Shown here in pieces: positions 1,479 through 11,887 of a stretch of DNA of 64,000 nt. The stretch spans positions 5,679,938 to 5,743,937 of the forward strand of contig FN649751.1 in assembly GCA_000310025.1 (NCBI GenBank). Direction: 5' to 3'. Position 1 is the stretch's first letter. The number at the start of each line of letters is the position of its first letter. Origin of the DNA: Ectocarpus siliculosus. Taxonomy: Eukaryota > Sar > Phaeophyceae > Ectocarpales > Ectocarpaceae. Under the pieces are notes generated by a model. That model ran no database searches. It saw nothing but the letters and a program-made list of their open reading frames with translations, and was not told where the DNA came from. The position numbers were made by a program, and so were the translations under genes.

Positions 1479-4247
1479 GACCCACACATCAGTTCGGGCG
1501 GCGCCAGCGTAGGTCTTAGAAGTGGGAGGAGGTAACGGAGAGGCTGCATGGAACAAAACCTCAGGTCTAGCTTCGAACCCTCTTTACCGCCCGTGTTCGA
1601 TGGTCCAGCTCAAAGGTAGCAAACACTAATATCATCCTCGAACAACGTGTGCGCCCGAGAAACAAAGGAGCGGCGGAGCGAGCGAGATTCTTGTGAGGCT
1701 CCACGATCACTCTCCAGGCATCGAAACCTCTCTCAACTGCGGTTGGTGAATCAAATGCAACCAAGAATCGCCTCTGGACCGCAAACGCGCGTGCTCAAAC
1801 CGCGGTCCGTCCTCCGAGACATGCATCTCCACCTCATGCCGGAGCAAACTACAGCAGACTCCAAATTTTGACACGCAATAACTAGGACTCGTTTCTACTA
1901 GTGTCGCGGGGGGTGCGCCTCTTTTCTTTGTACGATTCGCCCAATCAACACTTGAAGCGTGTCCACAAGAAGACCGACCAACCCCTAGCGTAGTTCTCCC
2001 CGATCATGAAAACGCACACCAACAATGCAACCGCTCACGCCCTCCCCAGATACGATATGCGACGCATGCATGCAACAGAGAAAAAAACTATCACGCGTCG
2101 GCCTACAAAAAATATATAGCTAGCTCACCGGCAGACCCCAACATTCGGGTTGTTCTGACATGAGGAGCAAGCGCCGCCATCCCTCGCACGCACGGCCCGA
2201 GAGCCAGCACCCCTGGGGGGGCCCCGCAGGCTACCGTCGCCTCCCCGATGGTCTCCTGGTCGCCGACCTTCATCTTCATGCCGTTCAAGAAAGCGCCGTT
2301 GCCGCTTGTAGCCGTGAACAGCTCGTCCCGGAACGGGTCATAGATGCAACCTGGGGGGGGGGGGGTCATGGTCAGAAACAATAAAAGTGTGCACGGTCGT
2401 CAGCGTCGCCAGTTGACTATTGATTCGTCAGTTTAGTATTGTGCCAGAAAAGATTCCGATTACAACTCGTTCTGCGTCAAAGTTGTCTTCTTCACACAAA
2501 AGCAGAGAAAGTTAGAGTCACCCTAGAAACGACAGCAGCACTCGCGTTTTTCTCACCGACAACCACCTTCCCGCGGTAAGCCACTCCGATCGACACAGCG
2601 CTGAGCGGGATCCCGTGAACGAAATTTGTCGTCCCGTCGATCGGATCCACGACCCACAGCCATTCCGCCGCCCCCCCCCCATCCAGGGCGTCGGAGAGCG
2701 CCACCGTCGAGGCCTCCGCCCCGGGCTCCACGTTCTCCTCTCCGAGCAACGCGTGGTCGGGAAACTGCTTGGACACGACCTTCTCGATGACCCGCTGGCA
2801 CTGGCCGTCCACCTCCGTGAGGAGGTCCTTGGGGTTGAACTTGGTCTTGAGGACGTCCGCCCCGACCTTGGCCTTCATGAGCGCGCCCGCCTCGCTTGCC
2901 GCGTGGACGGCGGCGGCGAGAACCTGGCGTTATAGTTTTGGAGCGGAGGAGCAGGGGTGTGCAGTTCGGGCTGCATAAAAGACTGTACACAGATTTGTTA
3001 TAGTTTCTCAAGAATCTCAAGAAAAATCTTTGGGCTGTACCAGGTTTTGTAAATTTTTCTTTGTGATTTGTTGAGGTTCGCTGGGCTCTTCGGGTCAAAA
3101 CGCGCCAGCCGTGTGAGCGTTTGGTCTTGGGAAACGTCACAACCAACAAATAACAGCTGGCAGCCAGCTGTAGGCTGGTTCTGCTGCCTGCCTTCGTTGT
3201 GTCATCTTGCATCACCCCCCTCGATGACACCGCTACGATCTCATGAGCCCTCTCCAGCACGTATGGTACAGCAATGTAGATTTATCATTTTTTTTATGTT
3301 CTTTCTACGTCGGCAGGTCTTTCCCTAGTGGCAGGACGGTGGGGCGGGGCGTAGGCAGGCGCTCGAATTCCTTGCTAAAGGAGGCACCACAAGTGAATGG
3401 GTAACTTTTCCTCTCCATGTGTGTGTGTGAAACATTATCTCATCCGCACGGACGACGCAAAAAAAAACGCTCGTGTCGAAAGCGAATCCAACATTCATAC
3501 GGGATCTTGCAAGGCTCTCTTCGTCTGGAGGAGGAGGAGGAGGAGGAGGAGGAGGAGGAGCAGGAAGAGGAGGAGGTAGGGGTGAGGTGGTTGTGGTGGC
3601 TATGATAGCGGGTGAGGAGGTCGGGGGGTGTAAGAAGCGTGATGTGTACATACCATGAACACATGAACCATGAACGCAGTGTAGCTTCTCAGCCTATGCT
3701 CCCATTCTGCACCGAAACGGTGCAACTCTGCAGGTTTACTTGCTGCCGTTACAGACTATTGGACATTTCCCTGCTTCTACCCATTCTCATACTCAACCCA
3801 CCCAATCTCTATGTCACAGCCTTTTTTCTCGCCTTCAGCCACTCCGGCAGAGATAGGGTTGCACAGCAGTACACTTCCTCTCTCCTCCCCCCGAGTCGCT
3901 ACTACTGCTGTCTTCGTAGAACCAGAACACGTGCAATCTACTGGCTGCTGTGAAGGTATTGGTACCGACATGAGGTCGACGGTAATGTGAATGTAGGTGT
4001 AGTGTAGCGAGAAGTGGAATGATAACCTCACCTCCGACAGTGTCTGCGAGTCCGGCACTACTCCTTCCGCAGCAGTGTCGGGTGCCCGCTGGGATGCAAC
4101 ACGCGACAGCAGCGCGTGGCGCGTAGGCTGCGACTTCGTCGGGTACCGCCGCATGGCGGAATGGTCGGATCTACTGCTGCTCAGGACAAAGGCTGTGCCG
4201 CCCGGCAAGCTCAGGAGTGCCACGGTGAAAGCGGTCGCACTCTTCAT
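497..4247 (-). CDS. Plastid-targeted inositol monophosphatase
   Basis: This is a Mg-dependent, Li-sensitive-type phosphatase that hydrolyses inositol monophosphates, and in plastid forms also related sugar phosphates. Exons are 4247-4032, 2923-2557, 2350-2129, 1387-1329 and 688-497. All introns are GT-AG and all phases agree, giving about 351 residues. Family motifs are GEE (about residue 133), DPIDGTTNF (165-173) and SWDIAAG (about 290), so the metal-binding residues are all present. The first 72 residues are absent from cytosolic enzymes. They start with a hydrophobic signal peptide ending GGTA, followed by FVLSSSR and a Ser/Arg-rich stretch, which matches the heterokont plastid leader (Phe at the cleavage site). 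The closest relatives are probably plant IMPL1-like enzymes. The start is the only in-frame ATG that gives this leader. Intron 3 contains a GA/CAGA microsatellite and an inverted repeat. Confidence 0.9.
900..1134. repeat. Imperfect inverted repeat in an inositol monophosphatase intron
   Basis: The left arm at about 903-966 (GTAAGAGGCGGAGAGATGGC to TTTCAAAGCTCGATT) is mirrored by the right arm at about 1076-1134 (AATCGAGTTTTGAAAGTCGA to CGCCTCTTACGGTAT). The spacer is about 110 bp and the arms differ at several positions. A MITE or a hairpin from a decayed insertion is possible. There is no coding content. Confidence 0.75.
1430..1482. repeat. GA/CAGA microsatellite
   Basis: A run of GA dinucleotides passes into CAGA tetranucleotides inside intron 3 of the inositol monophosphatase gene, close to the 3' splice site of exon 4 (acceptor at 1388-1390, minus strand). 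Confidence 0.9.
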
Positions 4248-6042
4248 CCTTTCCTTGCTGCTGTGACGAGCACACAGCCTTTCCTACTGGAGCTGCGACC
4301 GACGTGTCCGTCTGCTGGTTAGAAGTAGCAAACGCAAACAGCGTTGTTGCTGCCGCGCTGGCGCGCTGGCTCCCGGGGGATCCGCGAAAGAGAGGGTATA
4401 TGCCGCTTCGGAGATGTGTCCTAGCTGGGTACCTCTCCCACGCCACTCCTACTGCTGCTCCTGTTGCTACGCTGCTGCTGCTGCTTGGCTGTGCTGTGCT
4501 GCATATCGATACGCTCTCAAGCTCGGAGGAGGTACATTCCCACCGGACAAACCGCACGTGAGTGGTCTTGTTTCATGCTCCGAGGAAATGCTCCCGTGAG
4601 AGACAAATTGTGCAGCATGTGTTCTTCCAAAACGGCGATTGTTCACGCGTCCGTTACTGCTACAGCAGTGTCCTCGTACTTCGTCCATACCTACCCTGTG
4701 TTTCTTTGGGGGGGTGTAGCACTTACATCCCGTTTTGCGAGAGTGTACAGCAGGAGTATAATTGCATATCGTCGGTGTGTGGGTTCAAGTGGGAGCCCGT
4801 GCTCTAGTTATCGTTTTCACCATCACATCCCTGTCTGTGGGAGTATCCCGGAAACCTTGCGTGTATACTGTATATGATATGCATACAACACTTTTCTACT
4901 CCGAATGATCCATGTGTCCGCCCACATTCCACCGGTTCGCATTTCATTTCCTCTTGTATGCATATGCATACGGTAGAACAACACCGGTCGGCCCGGTGGC
5001 CTGGTAGATAACCTCGTAAATCTGCTAAGTAGCAGCAGGTCGTCACTTGGATTCTCTCTCGTGTAGTGAAAAATAATTGCAATTTTTGCGGTGAGTCTTA
5101 CAATACTCGGGTACAAGTACTCTGGAGGGTACCAGGTACAGCAGTAGCAGGTTGTAGAATTCATGACAGAACGGCAGCGAACCCTTTCGATGAAAGATCA
5201 AGTTAGGCAAGCACCGCAGGAGGAAAGGTGGGGCATCAAAACAATCTCATCCAATAGCTAAAGCTCTGCGGCCTTCTCCTGTGTGACCCCCCCGGCTGGT
5301 CATCCAATCATCTATCTACACGGAAGGTGTGTAGACTGGCGCCAGAATACTGTATTGTAGATACATCAAGGGACGAGTACACAGAGCAGTAGTCAGATAC
5401 ATCAAGGGACGAGTACACAGAGCAGTAGTCACGCTTCAAGCTCCTCTAGCAGAGGACCTTTACACCCAACGCTCTTGTGTTTTTTGCGCTACCTCTTGTC
5501 GGTGCTATTTGACAGGGTTGCTTCTATCATTACCATTCTTGAGGAGTAGTAAAACGCGTGTACCAAAGAGATGCCGCCATGTCCTGTATCACGCGCGACG
5601 TTTTGAGTGCGTGCAATACACATCATCAATGTCGGCGTCCGCCGCCATCTTTCAGTCTTTCAGAATCCAAGAAAAGAGTCCCAACGAAGAGTTGTTAATC
5701 GTTTGCGGGATGCACCAAACTTTGAAAAGCCTTGACTGTTGATCGATTGCTCGCCGACTCGACTCCGCATGAAGCTAACTCCAAAAATTGGAGTTGCGTT
5801 GTAAGCAATACTTCTGAACAGCGATGTACCCCCGCCCTTTGTTTGTGCAGAGCGCCCTTGTACTCTGGTGTAACCCACACTAGACTGCGGCTGTGAACGG
5901 CGCCAGGTGTTTGAGAGACGGACACTTTAACTCTACTGCTGTCGTCCTACACCCGCTGCTGCTGCCTCTACTGATACTGGTCTACATCAACGCAGGGCGA
6001 GGCAAGGGCCCCACGTCCTCCGGGTTTGCTCTCGAGGGTGGT
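4248..6042. promoter_or_regulatory. Divergent intergenic region between monophosphatase and transhydrogenase
   Basis: These 1.8 kb separate two outward-pointing starts (4247 minus, 6043 plus), so they should hold both promoters and 5' UTRs. I found no convincing TATA box. A GCT-rich triplet stretch lies at about 4448-4500 and a 36-bp tandem duplication at 5360-5431. No gene is recognised. Confidence 0.45.
5360..5431. repeat. Perfect 36-bp tandem duplication
   Basis: Two identical 36-bp units (5360-5395 and 5396-5431) begin GATACATCAAGGGACGAG and end GCAGTAGTCA. They include the widespread CAGTAGT motif. The duplication is probably recent. Confidence 0.95.
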
Positions 6043-9000
6043 ATGCTAGGCAGAAGGCACTTGCGCCTGGGCGAGGCGCTCAGCCGAGGGCTGCAGCGCC
6101 ACGCGCCCTCTTTGTGCGGGCGAGCGTCCAGCACCCAAGCAGCAGCCCTAGCGAAGTCCTCGGCCCACTACGACCTGGTCATCGTAGGGTCTGGGCCGGC
6201 GGCGCAGAAGTGCGCCATCGAGAGCGCCAAGTACGGCAAGAGCGTGTGCATCGTTGACAAGTCCAGCCAGCTGGGAGGGGTCTGCGTCCACACGGGGACC
6301 ATCCCCAGCAAGACGTTCAGGCGAGTCTCCCGCCGTCTCTCGCTCTTATCCCCCGCGCAAGGCTCGCGTAGTAGCAGAGCCGACTGCCCAAGAGCTCTGT
6401 GTCCAGTTAGCGTCCGCGGGAGAAAGCGAAGGGGGGTTTTGGTTGCACGAAAGGGTCGAATGTTGTTGAGAATTCTTGGACAGATGGCAGCGCACAAAGC
6501 AGTGCCCGTGTGCGCACCCGCGTGTGTTGGAGGGCTGGTATTGTTCCGGCAAGGGCACATCAGCGGATCCCGCTGTCACGTGCTGGGCTCTCTGGTGAAA
6601 CCAGTGTTGCCGGGAGACTGCTGACACGGATCGTATGGAAGGGCGCCGGCCGCACCCTGCGCATTAGTGCCGGTTCATCGCACGCGCCGCCGTCACCGCC
6701 GCAGAAGTGACTGCTGTGGAACCCTCTTGGTCTCTGAAGAGCCGTCTTGTTGGTTTCTTCGCCTCATAGTCTAAGTCGACAAGCTTTGCCCTTCTTATGA
6801 TGTCGCACTCCTTTTTCCAGGGAGGCCGTCCTGCATTTGACTGGGTGGAGGCATCAAGGGTTCTACGGCCGGTCTAGCCAGAGGGCAAGGGCGGCAGTGG
6901 CGATCCCTGACGTGCTGGCCAGGGTGCAAAAGGCGAGCCTATCCGATTTGGGGATTTACAGACATATCACTGCTCCGATGGTGCTTTTTTTTTACTGTTT
7001 TTTTAAATACTAAGCACCTCCCTACTGTTATTCTGCCTCAACACGGCCAACCTCCAATTAAGGAGTGCATTGCAAGGTCCGTTTGATCAGCCAACAGCAG
7101 TGATGTTTTCGCGGGTGTGATTATTTTTTGTACAGTGTAACCGGGGGCGTGTTCTAGGCAGACAACACAAGGGTCGGTTGAGTCCTGCTGCTGGCAGCGG
7201 ATCGTTGCTCTCTTGCAGCCGGGACAAAAATAGCAAAACCGCTGGGGGTGCGTGTCTCCGTGTATTGTTACCCAGCTGATCACCGATCGCTGCTACACGT
7301 CATCCGAACGGTATTATTGTATTTTTTGGTCCGGGGGGGGGGGAGTAGTGCGCGTTACGGCTGACCGACCAAAGCGAAAGAGCGTAGGTGAACGATAGAT
7401 TACGATTTCTAGTAGTTACGAGTTGGACAGATGTGTGCAAAGTCCCTGATTTTGATGGGCGCACCCCCATCCCAATTCGACAGCGACAATCTCTAAATCT
7501 TGGACACACCCATCCAGACCAGTGGAGTTTTTTTATTGGCTGAACACTTTGACGGTGGTGTCCAGGTTGAGGCGAAGGAGACCGAAGTGGTGCGGGACCA
7601 GCTGCAGCGGGAGGGCATCGAGCTCATCTCTGGGACGGCGAGGTTTTTGCCCGGGTCGGAGGGAGAGCCCCACCGTGTGATGGTCCTGCGGACCAGCGAG
7701 AAGACGGAGGCGAAGACAAGGTCAGCCTGGCGTGGCTGGCTGGCTCTCCAGTCGATGGAGTTTTTGTCAATCCTTTCGGCGAGCTTTTGGCACCAACGAC
7801 CAGAGTGTGGTGGATATTGAGATAGACGACGCATGACCGAGTGCTAGAAAGGCCGCGGGATCGAGAGGGGTTGACGGCGACAATGTCGTCCCACCTCTCC
7901 ATCAATATTCTCTTCCCCGGACGTAAGGCACACCCACGTTCGCTCTAGGCCTTTCCGCAGACACCAACTATCTGTCTCTCCTCTCACATATCTCCCCCTT
8001 GATGCCGGCGATCGATGGTAAGAATACGTCGTTTTTGCCATGATTCTCGCGTGACTATCCTCGCCCCCCCCACCCTGACCAATCCTCCGTCCTCTCGAGG
8101 ACGCGTGGTCAGTGGTCTAACAGCTAAGGCATGCAAGTCATGAGAGTACACCCCCCCCCGCCCCTGACCGCCCCGAACTTCAATGACATGCGTGCGACCC
8201 ACGTTATGCAGCGTCTACCGTCACATCGAGGCGTCCCTTCCCAGCGTGACCCTCTCGGCCGACCGTTTCCTGGTGGCCTGCGGGACGCGGCCGCTCCGGC
8301 GACCGGACGTCCCCTTCGACGGCTCCCGCGTCTTCGACTCCGACCAGCTGCTGTGGGGAGGGGTGGACAGGGTGCCCAGGGACCTCATCGTCGTAGGGGC
8401 CGGCGTCATCGGCATGGAGTACGCGAGCATGATCAACGTCATTCCGGGCACCACGGTCACGGTCATCGATCCGAGGGACGAGGTGCTGGGGTTCGCGGAC
8501 CGGGAGGTCACGCAGGCGCTGTGCTACTCCATGCGGAAGAACGGCGCCAGGTTTCTCCTCGGGGAGAAGGTACGGGCAGGCGGTCAGGGGAGCATGGGTC
8601 GGTCTTGGACATTGGGGCAAACCCGGCGGGCGCAGTTGGACGTGGTGATGGTCCGCACCCTCTCCGAAACAATGTGGTGCTGGACACCCGACAGACAACA
8701 GCCTTTCTCCCGTCTGTTTGCTTGCGCGTGCAGTTGAGTACCCAGCGTGGCCGCCTCATTTGGCTCCTTTGTTCCCGGTAGTCTATCGTCGTTTTACCCG
8801 TCTGTCTGCAGTGTCGAGCCCCTGTGAAGTACCAACTCCACAACACCCCGCCTATTATGCTTTTGTCTCTCACAGCTACTGTAGAACCCACTCGCGTGTG
8901 GAAGTGCACCAAAAGTGAGCGTGACGTGCGAAGAAAAACAACGAAAATTCTGCCGCAGGTGAAGAGCGTGGAAAAGATGGCCGACGGCACGGTGGTGGTG

Positions 9001-11887
9001 GCGCATCTGCTCAGCGGCAAGCGGGTAAAAGGGGACGCGCTCCTGTACGCGATGGGACGCCTCGGAAACACTGACTCGCTGAACTTGGAGGTGCGTGTGC
9101 CGGCGCGCAGCAGAGTGTTTTGTGGGATAGTCCTTCGCATTGCGTTCGTGTGGTGCGCCGTGTTTTCCGTTGCGTGCCCGCCACGTACACGTGTTGCTCA
9201 CAAGAAGATTGATCTGGGATGGGCTGAATTAGATCTATTTTGATGGTGAGGCACACATGTGGTTGTTCTCAGACGAGGTTCGGTGGCGGCTTGGCCTACC
9301 TTGCTCGGCGCGCTCGGGTTGGAGCGCATCGATTTGCCAGAGCGAGCTTAGGCGCCGGCAACGGACAGCCTGCGTGTGTCGAACGTTGGCAACTGGTATC
9401 CTCGTCTTACCCCCCCATCCCCCGATTGGCCATCGGTGATCCGTCCCGTGGGAACAATGCTCCGTCCTGTCGAGGACGCGCGGTCAATGGTCTAACCGCT
9501 AAGGCATGCAAAACATAAGAGTGCGCCCCCCCCCCCTCCCGACGCCTGAAACACCGCGACAATCCATCTCCTCGTGCTCGATTGCCGTCGACGTTTGGGC
9601 TGCTTGCCGCTGGCGGCGACGCAAAATCAGGCGATCGGGGTGGACCCGGACGAGCGCGGACTGCTGAACGTCGACGACTCCTACCAGACGGCCCAGGCAG
9701 GAGTGTACGCGTGCGGGGACGTGATCGGCTACCCGGCGCTGGCGTCAACGTCCATGGAACAAGGCGTGCGGGCTGCACATCACATGTGGAGCGACCACGT
9801 GTGTTTTTTCGTGTGTGTGGCCTTGTTGTTGGCATGAGCCGCGTTTGACCAATGACAAGACGTCAGTCTCAAATGCGGTAAGAACGAAAAATAGAGGCCA
9901 TGATCTGGGACCCCGTGAGGTGCGTGTGTGTGCGAGGGCTAGCTCGGCGGTGTCACAGCAGTTGATACATCCTCCTTCTTGCACGGAATCAACGCGGTTG
10001 CGTTCCAGTCGCGGTCTCGTTTTGCCGCGTGCGCCTCTACCGCGGGAGCTTCACGACGGCCTTGCCTCTGCATACGCTCCGTTTTTCCCGGGTACCGTGC
10101 AGGGAGCTCTCGCGACAGATGCCGCCGCCAAGGCCGCAGCGGCAGAAGGCGCTATAGAGGACAGCACCGGCAGCGTCGGCGACAGGTGATCCGCCAGATG
10201 CTTGGAGCGAGACACGAAAGCGAGAACGCCACTCTTGGGTCAATCGAGCGCTTGTGTATGTAGAGAGCGATGGGAACACCGGTGCTTGCCCTTGCACGGG
10301 GGTGTGCGAATGAATTATTTCACCATCCACGACGGAAGGTGGGTGCCGCCTGCCCGAGACCCTACATCGGCCGTCCCTTTTGCACTGTTTCGTTTACTCG
10401 TCTCCTGCAATCCTATTCAATTCCGTCCCGAACAATACGCAACAGTAGCGACAGCGATGGCGATAGCGATAGCGATAGCGATGTGGAGGAGGCGGGAATT
10501 GAAGACGGGGAAGAAAGGGGGGCTTTGGAGTCAGCAGCGACGGTGGCAGCGGCTTCACAGCCGTCTCAACAAGACCCCGTGGCCGCCGCAGGCACGACCA
10601 CTCTGAACGAAGCAACCAGCAGCACGGGGCCGTATGGGAGCATTCCCATGGGCCTCCTCGATCGTTCCTCGGAGCTCCTCTTCCCGTACGGTGAGGAAGT
10701 GCTTGACATTCAACATGCTCTGCGATAACCGGACACGAACAATGAGTTCCTCCTCAACAAAGGTTCATCGGAACACGACGCCGTATTCCTACCCTACGCG
10801 CTGGCGGCGACCGCTAGGGTTGACTCGATGCTACTTGCTGCACTAGCCTTGAATATGTGTTGCCCCCGGTTGCCCTGAGTTTGGTGCATATATCCTGACG
10901 AGTCCTGACGCGCGTTCCGCGCCGGTTCGCGGCAGGCATCTACACCATCCCCGAGATATCCATGGTTGGGAAGACGGAGGCCCAGCTTACGCGGGCGCAC
11001 GTGAGTTAGGAGGTGGTTCTCGGGGACTACCGAGAGGTGGGTTGAGGGGAAACGAGGGGGGGGGGGGGGGCGCCACTCTTCTTGCAGCCGCACTCTTCGC
11101 GCACCCACTGCTGCATGCGTCTCGAAAGGACGGGGTTGACTCGTAGGCGAAGGCCACTGGCTGCTGCCTGCCGTGTTCTTTGCTGCGCGCGTCTGCTGTG
11201 CGGTAGGCAGGGGCACACTTTTGGGGGGGAGGGACCACCGATTGAGCAAGGAACTTTGGTGCGCAGATAAACACCGGCAAGGTTTCTGAATTATGTTGGC
11301 GTGTTGCCTCGGTTCGAGAGGCAAAGGCGTTTGTTCTAAGTAGCGCCCTATGGAATTCCCCTTTTTTGCTGTGTTGGCCATCTTGCTGTTGCGCTCCTCT
11401 TGCTGCTGCAGCTCGCCAAGGGTCAAATGCTGGGAGGGGTGGACGGTTTCTTGAAGCTCTTGTTCGACACGAACACGCTCAAGCTGCTAGGGGTGCACGC
11501 GTTCGGCGAGGGGGCGACAGAAATCATCCACATCGGCCAGGTGAGCGGAGGAAGAGGAGAGAACTATTTGTGTACTGCGGGAGAAGAAAAAGGGGCCGTC
11601 GTAGGTGTTGCACCGATCGTGCACGAGGAGCGAGAGAATTTAATTCCCCCTTTGAAAGCAGGAAGTAATTTAGTAGAAAATATGACACCGCCGCTGACGA
11701 TGCGATCGATCGTGCTCCGTTTTTCGCTTATGGCCGCGCGACGATGCCTCTGGGCCCACGCCAGGTCGTCATGGCCCAGGGGGGCTCCGTGGATTACTTC
11801 CGGACGGCGGTGTTCAACTACCCGACGCTGGCGGAGGCTTACAACGTGGCCGCTAGAGACGGCTTGAGGAAAGTCGGCATCATTTAG
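6043..11887 (+). CDS. sthA-like: Soluble pyridine nucleotide transhydrogenase, mitochondrial type, with an in-frame TAG
   Basis: This flavoprotein transfers hydride between NADPH and NAD. Exons are 6043-6320, 6821-6932, 7566-7720, 8212-8569, 8959-9090, 9631-9798, 10103-10185, 10449-10690, 10936-11036, 11412-11540 and 11765-11887, phase-consistent throughout, 627 codons. The Arg-rich start ([15 protein letters not shown]) looks like a mitochondrial presequence. The FAD motif [10 protein letters not shown] is at about residue 46, [12 protein letters not shown] has only one redox Cys as in bacterial SthA, the NAD motif [13 protein letters not shown] is at about 243, and [12 protein letters not shown] and the dimerisation end [12 protein letters not shown] follow. 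Introns 1 and 2 use GC donors. Exon 8 is an acidic insertion not found in bacterial SthA. Codon 534 (11007-11009) is TAG. The start of exon 4 could also be the nearby CCCAG. The enzyme may be truncated, rescued by splicing, or affected by a sequence error. Confidence 0.85.
6321..6820 (+). other. GC-AG intron 1 of the transhydrogenase
   Basis: The exon ends ACGTTCAG and the intron begins GCGAGTC; it ends CTTTTTCCAG. Only this GC donor joins TTC AG with G GAG to give the conserved Phe-Arg-Glu-Ala after TIPSK. A shift to any neighbouring GT breaks the frame. Confidence 0.8.
6933..7565 (+). other. GC-AG intron 2 of the transhydrogenase
   Basis: The exon ends GTGCAAAAG and the intron begins GCGAGCC; it ends GGTGTCCAG. 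With this donor the stretch from [10 protein letters not shown] into VEAKETEV has the same length as bacterial SthA as I recall it. An upstream GT donor (after CCAGG) is in frame too, but it would drop three residues. Confidence 0.65.
8080..8155 (+). repeat. tRNA-like dispersed repeat, copy B
   Basis: It shares CTCCGTCCT, TCGAGGACGCG, TGGTCTAAC, GCTAAGGCATGCAA and a terminal poly-C run with the copy at 9445-9540. It lies in transhydrogenase intron 3, just upstream of exon 4. Confidence 0.7.
9445..9540 (+). repeat. tRNA-like dispersed repeat, copy C
   Basis: This is the closest relative of the 8080-8155 copy, with the same ordered blocks and poly-C end, in transhydrogenase intron 5. Read on the minus strand it gives GCCTTAGCGGTTAGACCA, reminiscent of a tRNA D-arm/A-box. 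Confidence 0.7.

What the first reader, a model, noticed from the sequence alone, without database searches (positions are those of the whole stretch)
11001..11009. In-frame TAG in the transhydrogenase, with a perfect donor six bases upstream that would skip it
Codon 534 reads TAG where related enzymes have an aromatic residue ([16 protein letters not shown] against the bacterial pattern xxPYEV). Immediately upstream is CAC|GTGAGT, an ideal donor. Splicing from it to the exon 10 acceptor keeps the frame, removes the stop and deletes 12 residues. So the same bases can be read as a nonsense codon or as a rescue splice. The flanking codons still look conserved, so the change is recent, an assembly error, or a regulated choice.
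Basis: partly seen in the sequence, partly recalled or inferred. Interest (0 to 1): 0.7.

Follow-up and report, generated by a model that had tools for sequence, protein, structure and literature searches.

The report
Stop codon in algal transhydrogenase gene
The only soluble-transhydrogenase gene found in a brown alga's draft genome carries one stop codon inside an otherwise intact reading frame; it is most likely a one-letter change or sequencing error, and the proposed rescue by splicing is weakly supported.

Summary
The in-frame TAG at 11007-11009 is really in the assembly. It lies in exon 9 of an 11-exon soluble NAD(P) transhydrogenase (SthA) gene, the only copy found in a brown-algal genome whose contig sizes resemble the linkage groups of the Ectocarpus siliculosus draft. 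The stop stands where 87 of 87 aligned bacterial relatives have Tyr or Phe. The upstream GTGAGT would keep the frame and remove 12 codons (11 residues and the stop). It is not a perfect donor: it has C at -1 and pairs with this genome's U1 far less well than the normal donor (-5.5 against -9.7 kcal/mol). In this gene 206 of 583 codons have a frame-keeping GT at least as strong upstream in their exon. The stretch it would remove is gap-free in 87 of 87 relatives. Best reading: a one-base change at a Tyr codon, a base-call error in the draft or a recent null allele, not a splice switch. One result resists this: the stretch lies in the most deviant part of the protein (5 of 12 residues unseen in relatives, stop included), so a donor shift in progress is not excluded. 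No RNA evidence was available.

The parts
6043..11887 (+). SthA-type soluble NAD(P) transhydrogenase gene, 11 exons (coding part), only copy found in the genome
   Evidence: splice model; NCBIfam NF003585 531.5 bits vs cut-off 465; no second copy
6283..6300 (+). CXXXXT motif (CVHTGT, residues 81-86) characteristic of soluble transhydrogenases
   Evidence: motif described in PMC9460512 (passages)
10936..11036 (+). exon 9, carrying the in-frame stop
11001..11006 (+). GTGAGT donor-like hexamer, exon side CAC (weak U1 pairing)
11007..11009 (+). in-frame TAG at codon 535, aromatic column in relatives
11001..11036 (+). 12 codons that the alternative donor would remove; gap-free in 87 of 87 relatives; in the most deviant part of the protein
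11037..11411 (+). intron 9 with the strong normal donor GAG|GTGGGT and acceptor CTGCAG
11056..11070 (+). 15-G homopolymer starting 47 nt after the stop; the window's one N gap abuts a 25-C tract
11412..11540 (+). exon 10, open and conserved downstream of the stop
11765..11887 (+). exon 11, open and conserved, ends in TAG

Best explanation
The TAG is a single-base change at what was a Tyr codon of the only SthA gene found: slightly more likely a base-call error in a draft assembly, otherwise a recent null allele of the sequenced strain. Splicing uses the strong donor at 11036/11037. If the stop is real, the protein ends after residue 534, loses about three quarters of the dimerisation domain and is inactive; membrane transhydrogenase (PntB-type) genes elsewhere may make the loss tolerable. 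Shown: the stop, its frame, that no second copy was found, the predicted donor strengths, the PntB matches. Inferred: that splicing is normal, that the ancestral codon was Tyr, that the change is recent, and that error and null allele split about 0.42 to 0.30.
For: The frame is open over 627 codons with one stop, and all ten modelled introns run from GT or GC to AG. Exons 10-11 are conserved and uninterrupted, so the lesion is young or not real. Relatives have Tyr/Phe (87 of 87); this CDS writes Tyr as TAC 16 times and TAT once, both one base from TAG. Contig sizes resemble the linkage groups of the Ectocarpus siliculosus draft (with passages of PMC4333798). The published V2 reference had a contig N50 of 33 kb and 11,588 gaps (PMC11541908 passages). 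A 15-G tract starts 47 nt downstream, and the window's one N gap (80 N) abuts 25 C. Normal donor far stronger than the rescue donor. A frame-keeping GT at least as strong exists upstream in the same exon for 206 of 583 codons of exons 1-10, within 12 nt for 28 of 583. PntB family matches on C2 and C11 (8 matches, 7 over the cut-off).
Against: In the would-be removed segment 5 of 12 residues, stop included, occur in none of 87 relatives; no other place among 368 twelve-residue windows reaches 5 (the five that do overlap here), and one of the five residues is at a column that is Gly in 87 of 87. A lone error or fresh null does not explain that cluster. Without the stop the count is 4, which windows elsewhere also reach. 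Demanding GTRAGT within 12 nt, only 4 of 583 codons qualify, all through this one site. The draft's error rate was not measured here, and that it is a Sanger assembly is recalled.
Confidence: 0.72

Rival explanations
1. Donor shift (exon end turned into intron): the upstream GTGAGT is now the main donor, the protein has lost 11 residues, and the former coding stretch is decaying, hence the stop and the unusual residues.
For: Frame kept exactly; 5 of 12 residues of the segment unseen in 87 relatives, stop included, the highest count in the protein; three of the gene's ten modelled donors pair with U1 less well than the upstream site; downstream exons conserved.
Against: C at -1; the old donor is intact and second strongest of the gene; removed stretch gap-free in 87 of 87 relatives and aligned without a gap even to a dihydrolipoyl dehydrogenase, 3urh; dimerisation-domain score falls from 84.9 to 68.1 bits; [quoted passage not shown]
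Confidence: 0.12
2. Regulated choice: both donors are used, the long form carries a stop and is degraded, the short form is made when the enzyme is wanted.
For: Two frame-compatible donors 36 nt apart; a stop in the longer form would suit decay-coupled regulation (general knowledge).
Against: The long, stop-bearing form has the much stronger predicted donor, so the default would be the null form; the short form lacks a stretch kept in 87 of 87 relatives; no transcript data.
Confidence: 0.06
3. The UAG is read as an amino acid (readthrough, a suppressor tRNA, or editing of the mRNA), restoring an aromatic residue.
For: Aromatic column; downstream exons conserved; in-frame TAG also stands in EsV-1-7 repeat arrays at three loci, at a column where sister repeats mostly have Gln.
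Against: The same gene ends in TAG. A scan for tRNAs with a CTA anticodon was swamped by what looks like one interspersed repeat, and ARAGORN (bacterial setting) found no tRNA in the 30 of 459 matches fetched, so this is untested rather than excluded. The EsV-1-7 cases may be pseudogenes: the commonest sense codon there, CAG, is one step from TAG, and one array also holds a TAA.
Confidence: 0.04

Closest known systems
Si-specific NAD(P)(+) transhydrogenase, SthA/UdhA (NCBIfam NF003585)
   Same: 531.5 bits against a curated cut-off of 465; CXXXXT motif; best solved relative is 9n4y, soluble pyridine nucleotide transhydrogenase
   Different: Interrupted by 10 introns; acidic insert of about 100 residues before the dimerisation domain; in-frame stop at codon 535
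Nonsense (null) allele or consensus base error in a draft genome
   Same: One stop in an otherwise open, conserved frame of a gene with no second copy found
   Different: Clustered unusual residues around the stop
Exon end turned into intron / exitron-like splicing (PMC2740785 abstract; PMC4484396 seen only in a search listing)
   Same: Frame-keeping removal of coding sequence, here containing a stop
   Different: Weak donor next to a strong intact one; no transcript evidence

Membership tests
Soluble transhydrogenase (SthA) | Curated family score | tested here: met
   NF003585 531.5 bits, cut-off 465, with X at the stop
Soluble transhydrogenase (SthA) | CXXXXT where disulphide reductases have CXXXXC | tested here: met
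   CVHTGT residues 81-86; among 87 relatives Thr in 87 and Cys in 62; motif from PMC9460512 passages
Soluble transhydrogenase (SthA) | Complete dimerisation domain in one open frame | tested here: not met
   PF02852 spans residues 509-616 but the frame stops at 535
Functional alternative 5' splice site | Frame kept and stop removed | tested here: met
   36 nt removed
Functional alternative 5' splice site | Donor strength comparable with the competing donor | tested here: not met
   -5.5 against -9.7 kcal/mol on 9-mers with this genome's U1 5' end; a simple pairing energy, no trained splice model
Functional alternative 5' splice site | Product keeps the conserved fold elements | tested here: inconclusive
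   Segment gap-free in 87 of 87 relatives; PF02852 84.9 to 68.1 bits; no structure model could be made
Functional alternative 5' splice site | Transcripts with the junction | not testable with these tools
   no RNA reads available
Base error in a draft assembly | Other assemblies or strains lack the stop | not testable with these tools
   no tool offered a second assembly of this alga; the own genome has one match to the exon

The most novel reading that the evidence does not exclude
UAG is sometimes read as an amino acid in this alga: the SthA stop at an aromatic position and the TAGs at a mostly-Gln column inside EsV-1-7 repeat arrays at three loci would be translated sense codons. A milder novel reading is a donor shift caught while the abandoned coding stretch decays (0.12).
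Probability: 0.04. Interest if true: 0.8.

Novelty: new member of a known kind. Interest (0 to 1): 0.2.

Why it matters
If the stop is an error, the annotation of the alga's soluble transhydrogenase needs correcting and nothing more. If it is a real null, the sequenced strain lacks a redox-balancing enzyme. If the donor has really shifted, it would be an example of coding sequence becoming intron, caught early. One look at a long-read assembly and existing RNA-seq would decide.

Tried and rejected
Looked for a second, intact copy in the genome: none found. Viral contigs scanned for relatives of the C-terminal part: 20 stretches matched a pattern, none encoded a relative. Considered a local frame slip as the cause; by eye, the two shifted readings of 11001-11036 do not resemble the family, so a substitution is favoured. 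Considered exon 9 skipping: exon 9 is 101 nt, not a multiple of 3. Considered that TAG is a general sense codon: the gene itself ends in TAG. Looked for a CTA-anticodon tRNA: the pattern gave 459 matches (13 in the reversed control); the about 100 rows listed look like one repeat family; ARAGORN found 0 tRNAs in the 30 loci fetched. L010 showed a TAG in a stretch of the same domain, but it lies past what looks like that exon's donor. Literature, all in the open-licence library: Ectocarpus with soluble pyridine nucleotide transhydrogenase gave 0 papers; brown alga with stop codon readthrough gave 2, seen only in the listing and off topic by title; Ectocarpus with splice sites and GC-AG gave 2, brown alga with alternative splicing and nonsense-mediated gave 9, Ectocarpus with introns per gene or splice donor gave 33 of which 12 were listed; listings only, plus passages of PMC6337836 and PMC12702839: nothing on this gene.

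Full report
What is there. The window lies at C26:5679938-5743937 of a 189.5 Mb, 492-contig genome. EsV_1_7_cys repeats (PF19114) give 150 matches among the 150 of 880 candidates that were scored, and none in 14 control genomes; that the family is expanded in brown algae is recalled. I saw the sizes of 24 of the first 34 contigs: from 576,333 (C31) to 9,283,201 bases (C2). Contig 34 has 984,112 bases and contig 35 has 17,891. PMC4333798 (passages) gives linkage groups from 578 (printed as Mbp, evidently kb) to 9.36 Mbp for Ectocarpus siliculosus, 32 in one passage and LG01 to LG34 in a legend. The sizes are close, not identical, and some later contigs are larger than C31 (C492 629,064; C476 over 800,000 by its hits). 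I infer that this is that draft; the tool names no organism, and that the draft is Sanger-based is recalled.

The gene. Joining 11 exons from 6043 to 11887 gives 627 codons before the terminal TAG, with one internal stop at codon 535. The boundaries between exons 6 and 8 lie in a poorly conserved insert and are less certain; the donor assigned to exon 6 pairs with U1 at only -2.1 kcal/mol. The protein scores 531.5 bits against the SthA equivalog NF003585, cut-off 465, carries the CXXXXT motif, and its best solved relative is 9n4y, a soluble pyridine nucleotide transhydrogenase. No second copy was found: a 131-base probe hits once, the C-terminal 83 residues hit only the two own exons and a 33%-identical stretch on C1, and of 14 matches to PF02852 two lie in this gene. 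These searches score only the best candidates.

The stop. Eighty relatives from genome contigs and seven from plasmid records were aligned with the window protein, none dropped. At the stop column 57 have Tyr and 30 have Phe. All 87 have no gap in the 12 columns that the alternative donor would remove. The stop truncates the protein inside the dimerisation domain (residues 509-616).

The donor. The six U1 loci fetched carry the canonical ATACTTACCTG 5' end. Pairing energies on 9-mers are -5.5 for CAC|GTGAGT and -9.7 for GAG|GTGGGT, the second strongest of ten modelled donors; three modelled donors are weaker than the upstream site (-5.4, -5.2, -2.1). Among 91 GT sites in the joined exons 1-10 the upstream site ranks tenth. 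Taking every codon of the first ten exons as an imaginary stop (exon 9 included), 206 of 583 have a frame-keeping GT of at least this strength upstream in the same exon and 28 of 583 within 12 nt. With GTRAGT demanded within 12 nt, 4 of 583 qualify, through this one site, the only such hexamer in the CDS. The coincidence is therefore mild by strength and notable only by hexamer. GTGAGT is not enriched on the + strand (11 found, 14.8 expected; 23 on the other strand, no expectation computed).

The result against my reading. In segment 533-544, 5 of 12 residues (stop included) are seen in no relative, against a mean of 1.15 per 12 residues; the five windows of 368 that reach 5 start at residues 530 to 534 and so all overlap this place. 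Val538 stands where 87 of 87 have Gly; only 3 of 62 invariant columns differ in the whole protein. Leaving the stop out the segment's count is 4; with the stop counted, 19 of 368 windows reach 4 or more, some of them elsewhere (from residue 546 on). This suggests relaxed constraint or local miscalls, and it keeps the donor-shift reading alive. Comparison is with bacteria only; no eukaryotic SthA was available, so lineage-specific divergence may be the cause.

Consequences of the splice. The short form keeps a recognisable but weaker dimerisation domain (68.1 against 84.9 bits). PMC9460512 (passages) says that soluble transhydrogenases form octamers or filaments and cites chimera work suggesting that the C-terminal 113 residues matter for that assembly. 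From general knowledge of flavoprotein disulphide reductases the removed stretch is a beta-strand of the interface domain; I could not model it.

Why error or null allele. The draft has its only N run in this window (80 N) against 25 C, and a 15-G tract starts 47 nt after the stop. A later paper describes the V2 reference as having a contig N50 of 33 kb and 11,588 gaps (PMC11541908 passages). PntB-type membrane transhydrogenase matches exist at two places, so loss of SthA could be borne. The split between error and null is my judgement. A neighbouring conserved stretch, inositol monophosphatase at 2576-2929 minus, is uninterrupted; I checked no other neighbour, so the draft's general rate of false stops is unknown.

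Verdict. Ordinary in kind: one stop codon by a one-base change. The splice rescue remains possible but is not the best reading.

Noticed in passing
L112 (G000 C29:376500-380000), L113 (C11:671000-675000), L114 (C72:181800-185000): EsV-1-7 repeat arrays carry in-frame TAG at one column between repeats; 5 of the 150 scored matches are flagged with a stop and all five are TAG (3 in one tandem array, 1 each at two other loci). Sister repeats in these three arrays read CAG 17 times and CAA 3 times there, other sense codons 6 times; the C72 array also holds a TAA. Simple reading: CAG-to-TAG changes in a decaying family; bold reading: leaky UAG.
   Followed up: partly
L117-L146 (examples), genome-wide: A tRNA-like interspersed repeat with CTA where an anticodon would sit: 459 pattern matches against 13 in the reversed-pattern control; ARAGORN calls no tRNA in the 30 loci fetched.
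   Followed up: partly
window 6320/6321 and 6932/6933: Introns 1 and 2 both appear to start with GC (CAG|GCGAGT, AAG|GCGAGC), two of ten introns in the model.
   Followed up: no
window 8077-8168 and 9452-9543: Two copies (85% alike) of a repeat lie in introns 3 and 5 of the gene; by eye tRNA-like, with a similar stretch near 370-430.
   Followed up: no
window 10103-10690: Exons 7 and 8 encode an acidic low-complexity insert just before the dimerisation domain that the aligned 9n4y sequence lacks.
   Followed up: no
window 5359-5430: Exact tandem duplication of a 36-base unit upstream of the gene.
   Followed up: no
window 2576-2929, minus strand: Neighbouring gene encodes an inositol monophosphatase family protein (PF00459, 93.1 bits for this stretch); further exons towards 500 are a guess by eye.
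   Followed up: partly
G000 C11:2658990-2659094: A PntB-family match is listed with an open frame of 11008 residues, perhaps a run of N read as open.
   Followed up: no
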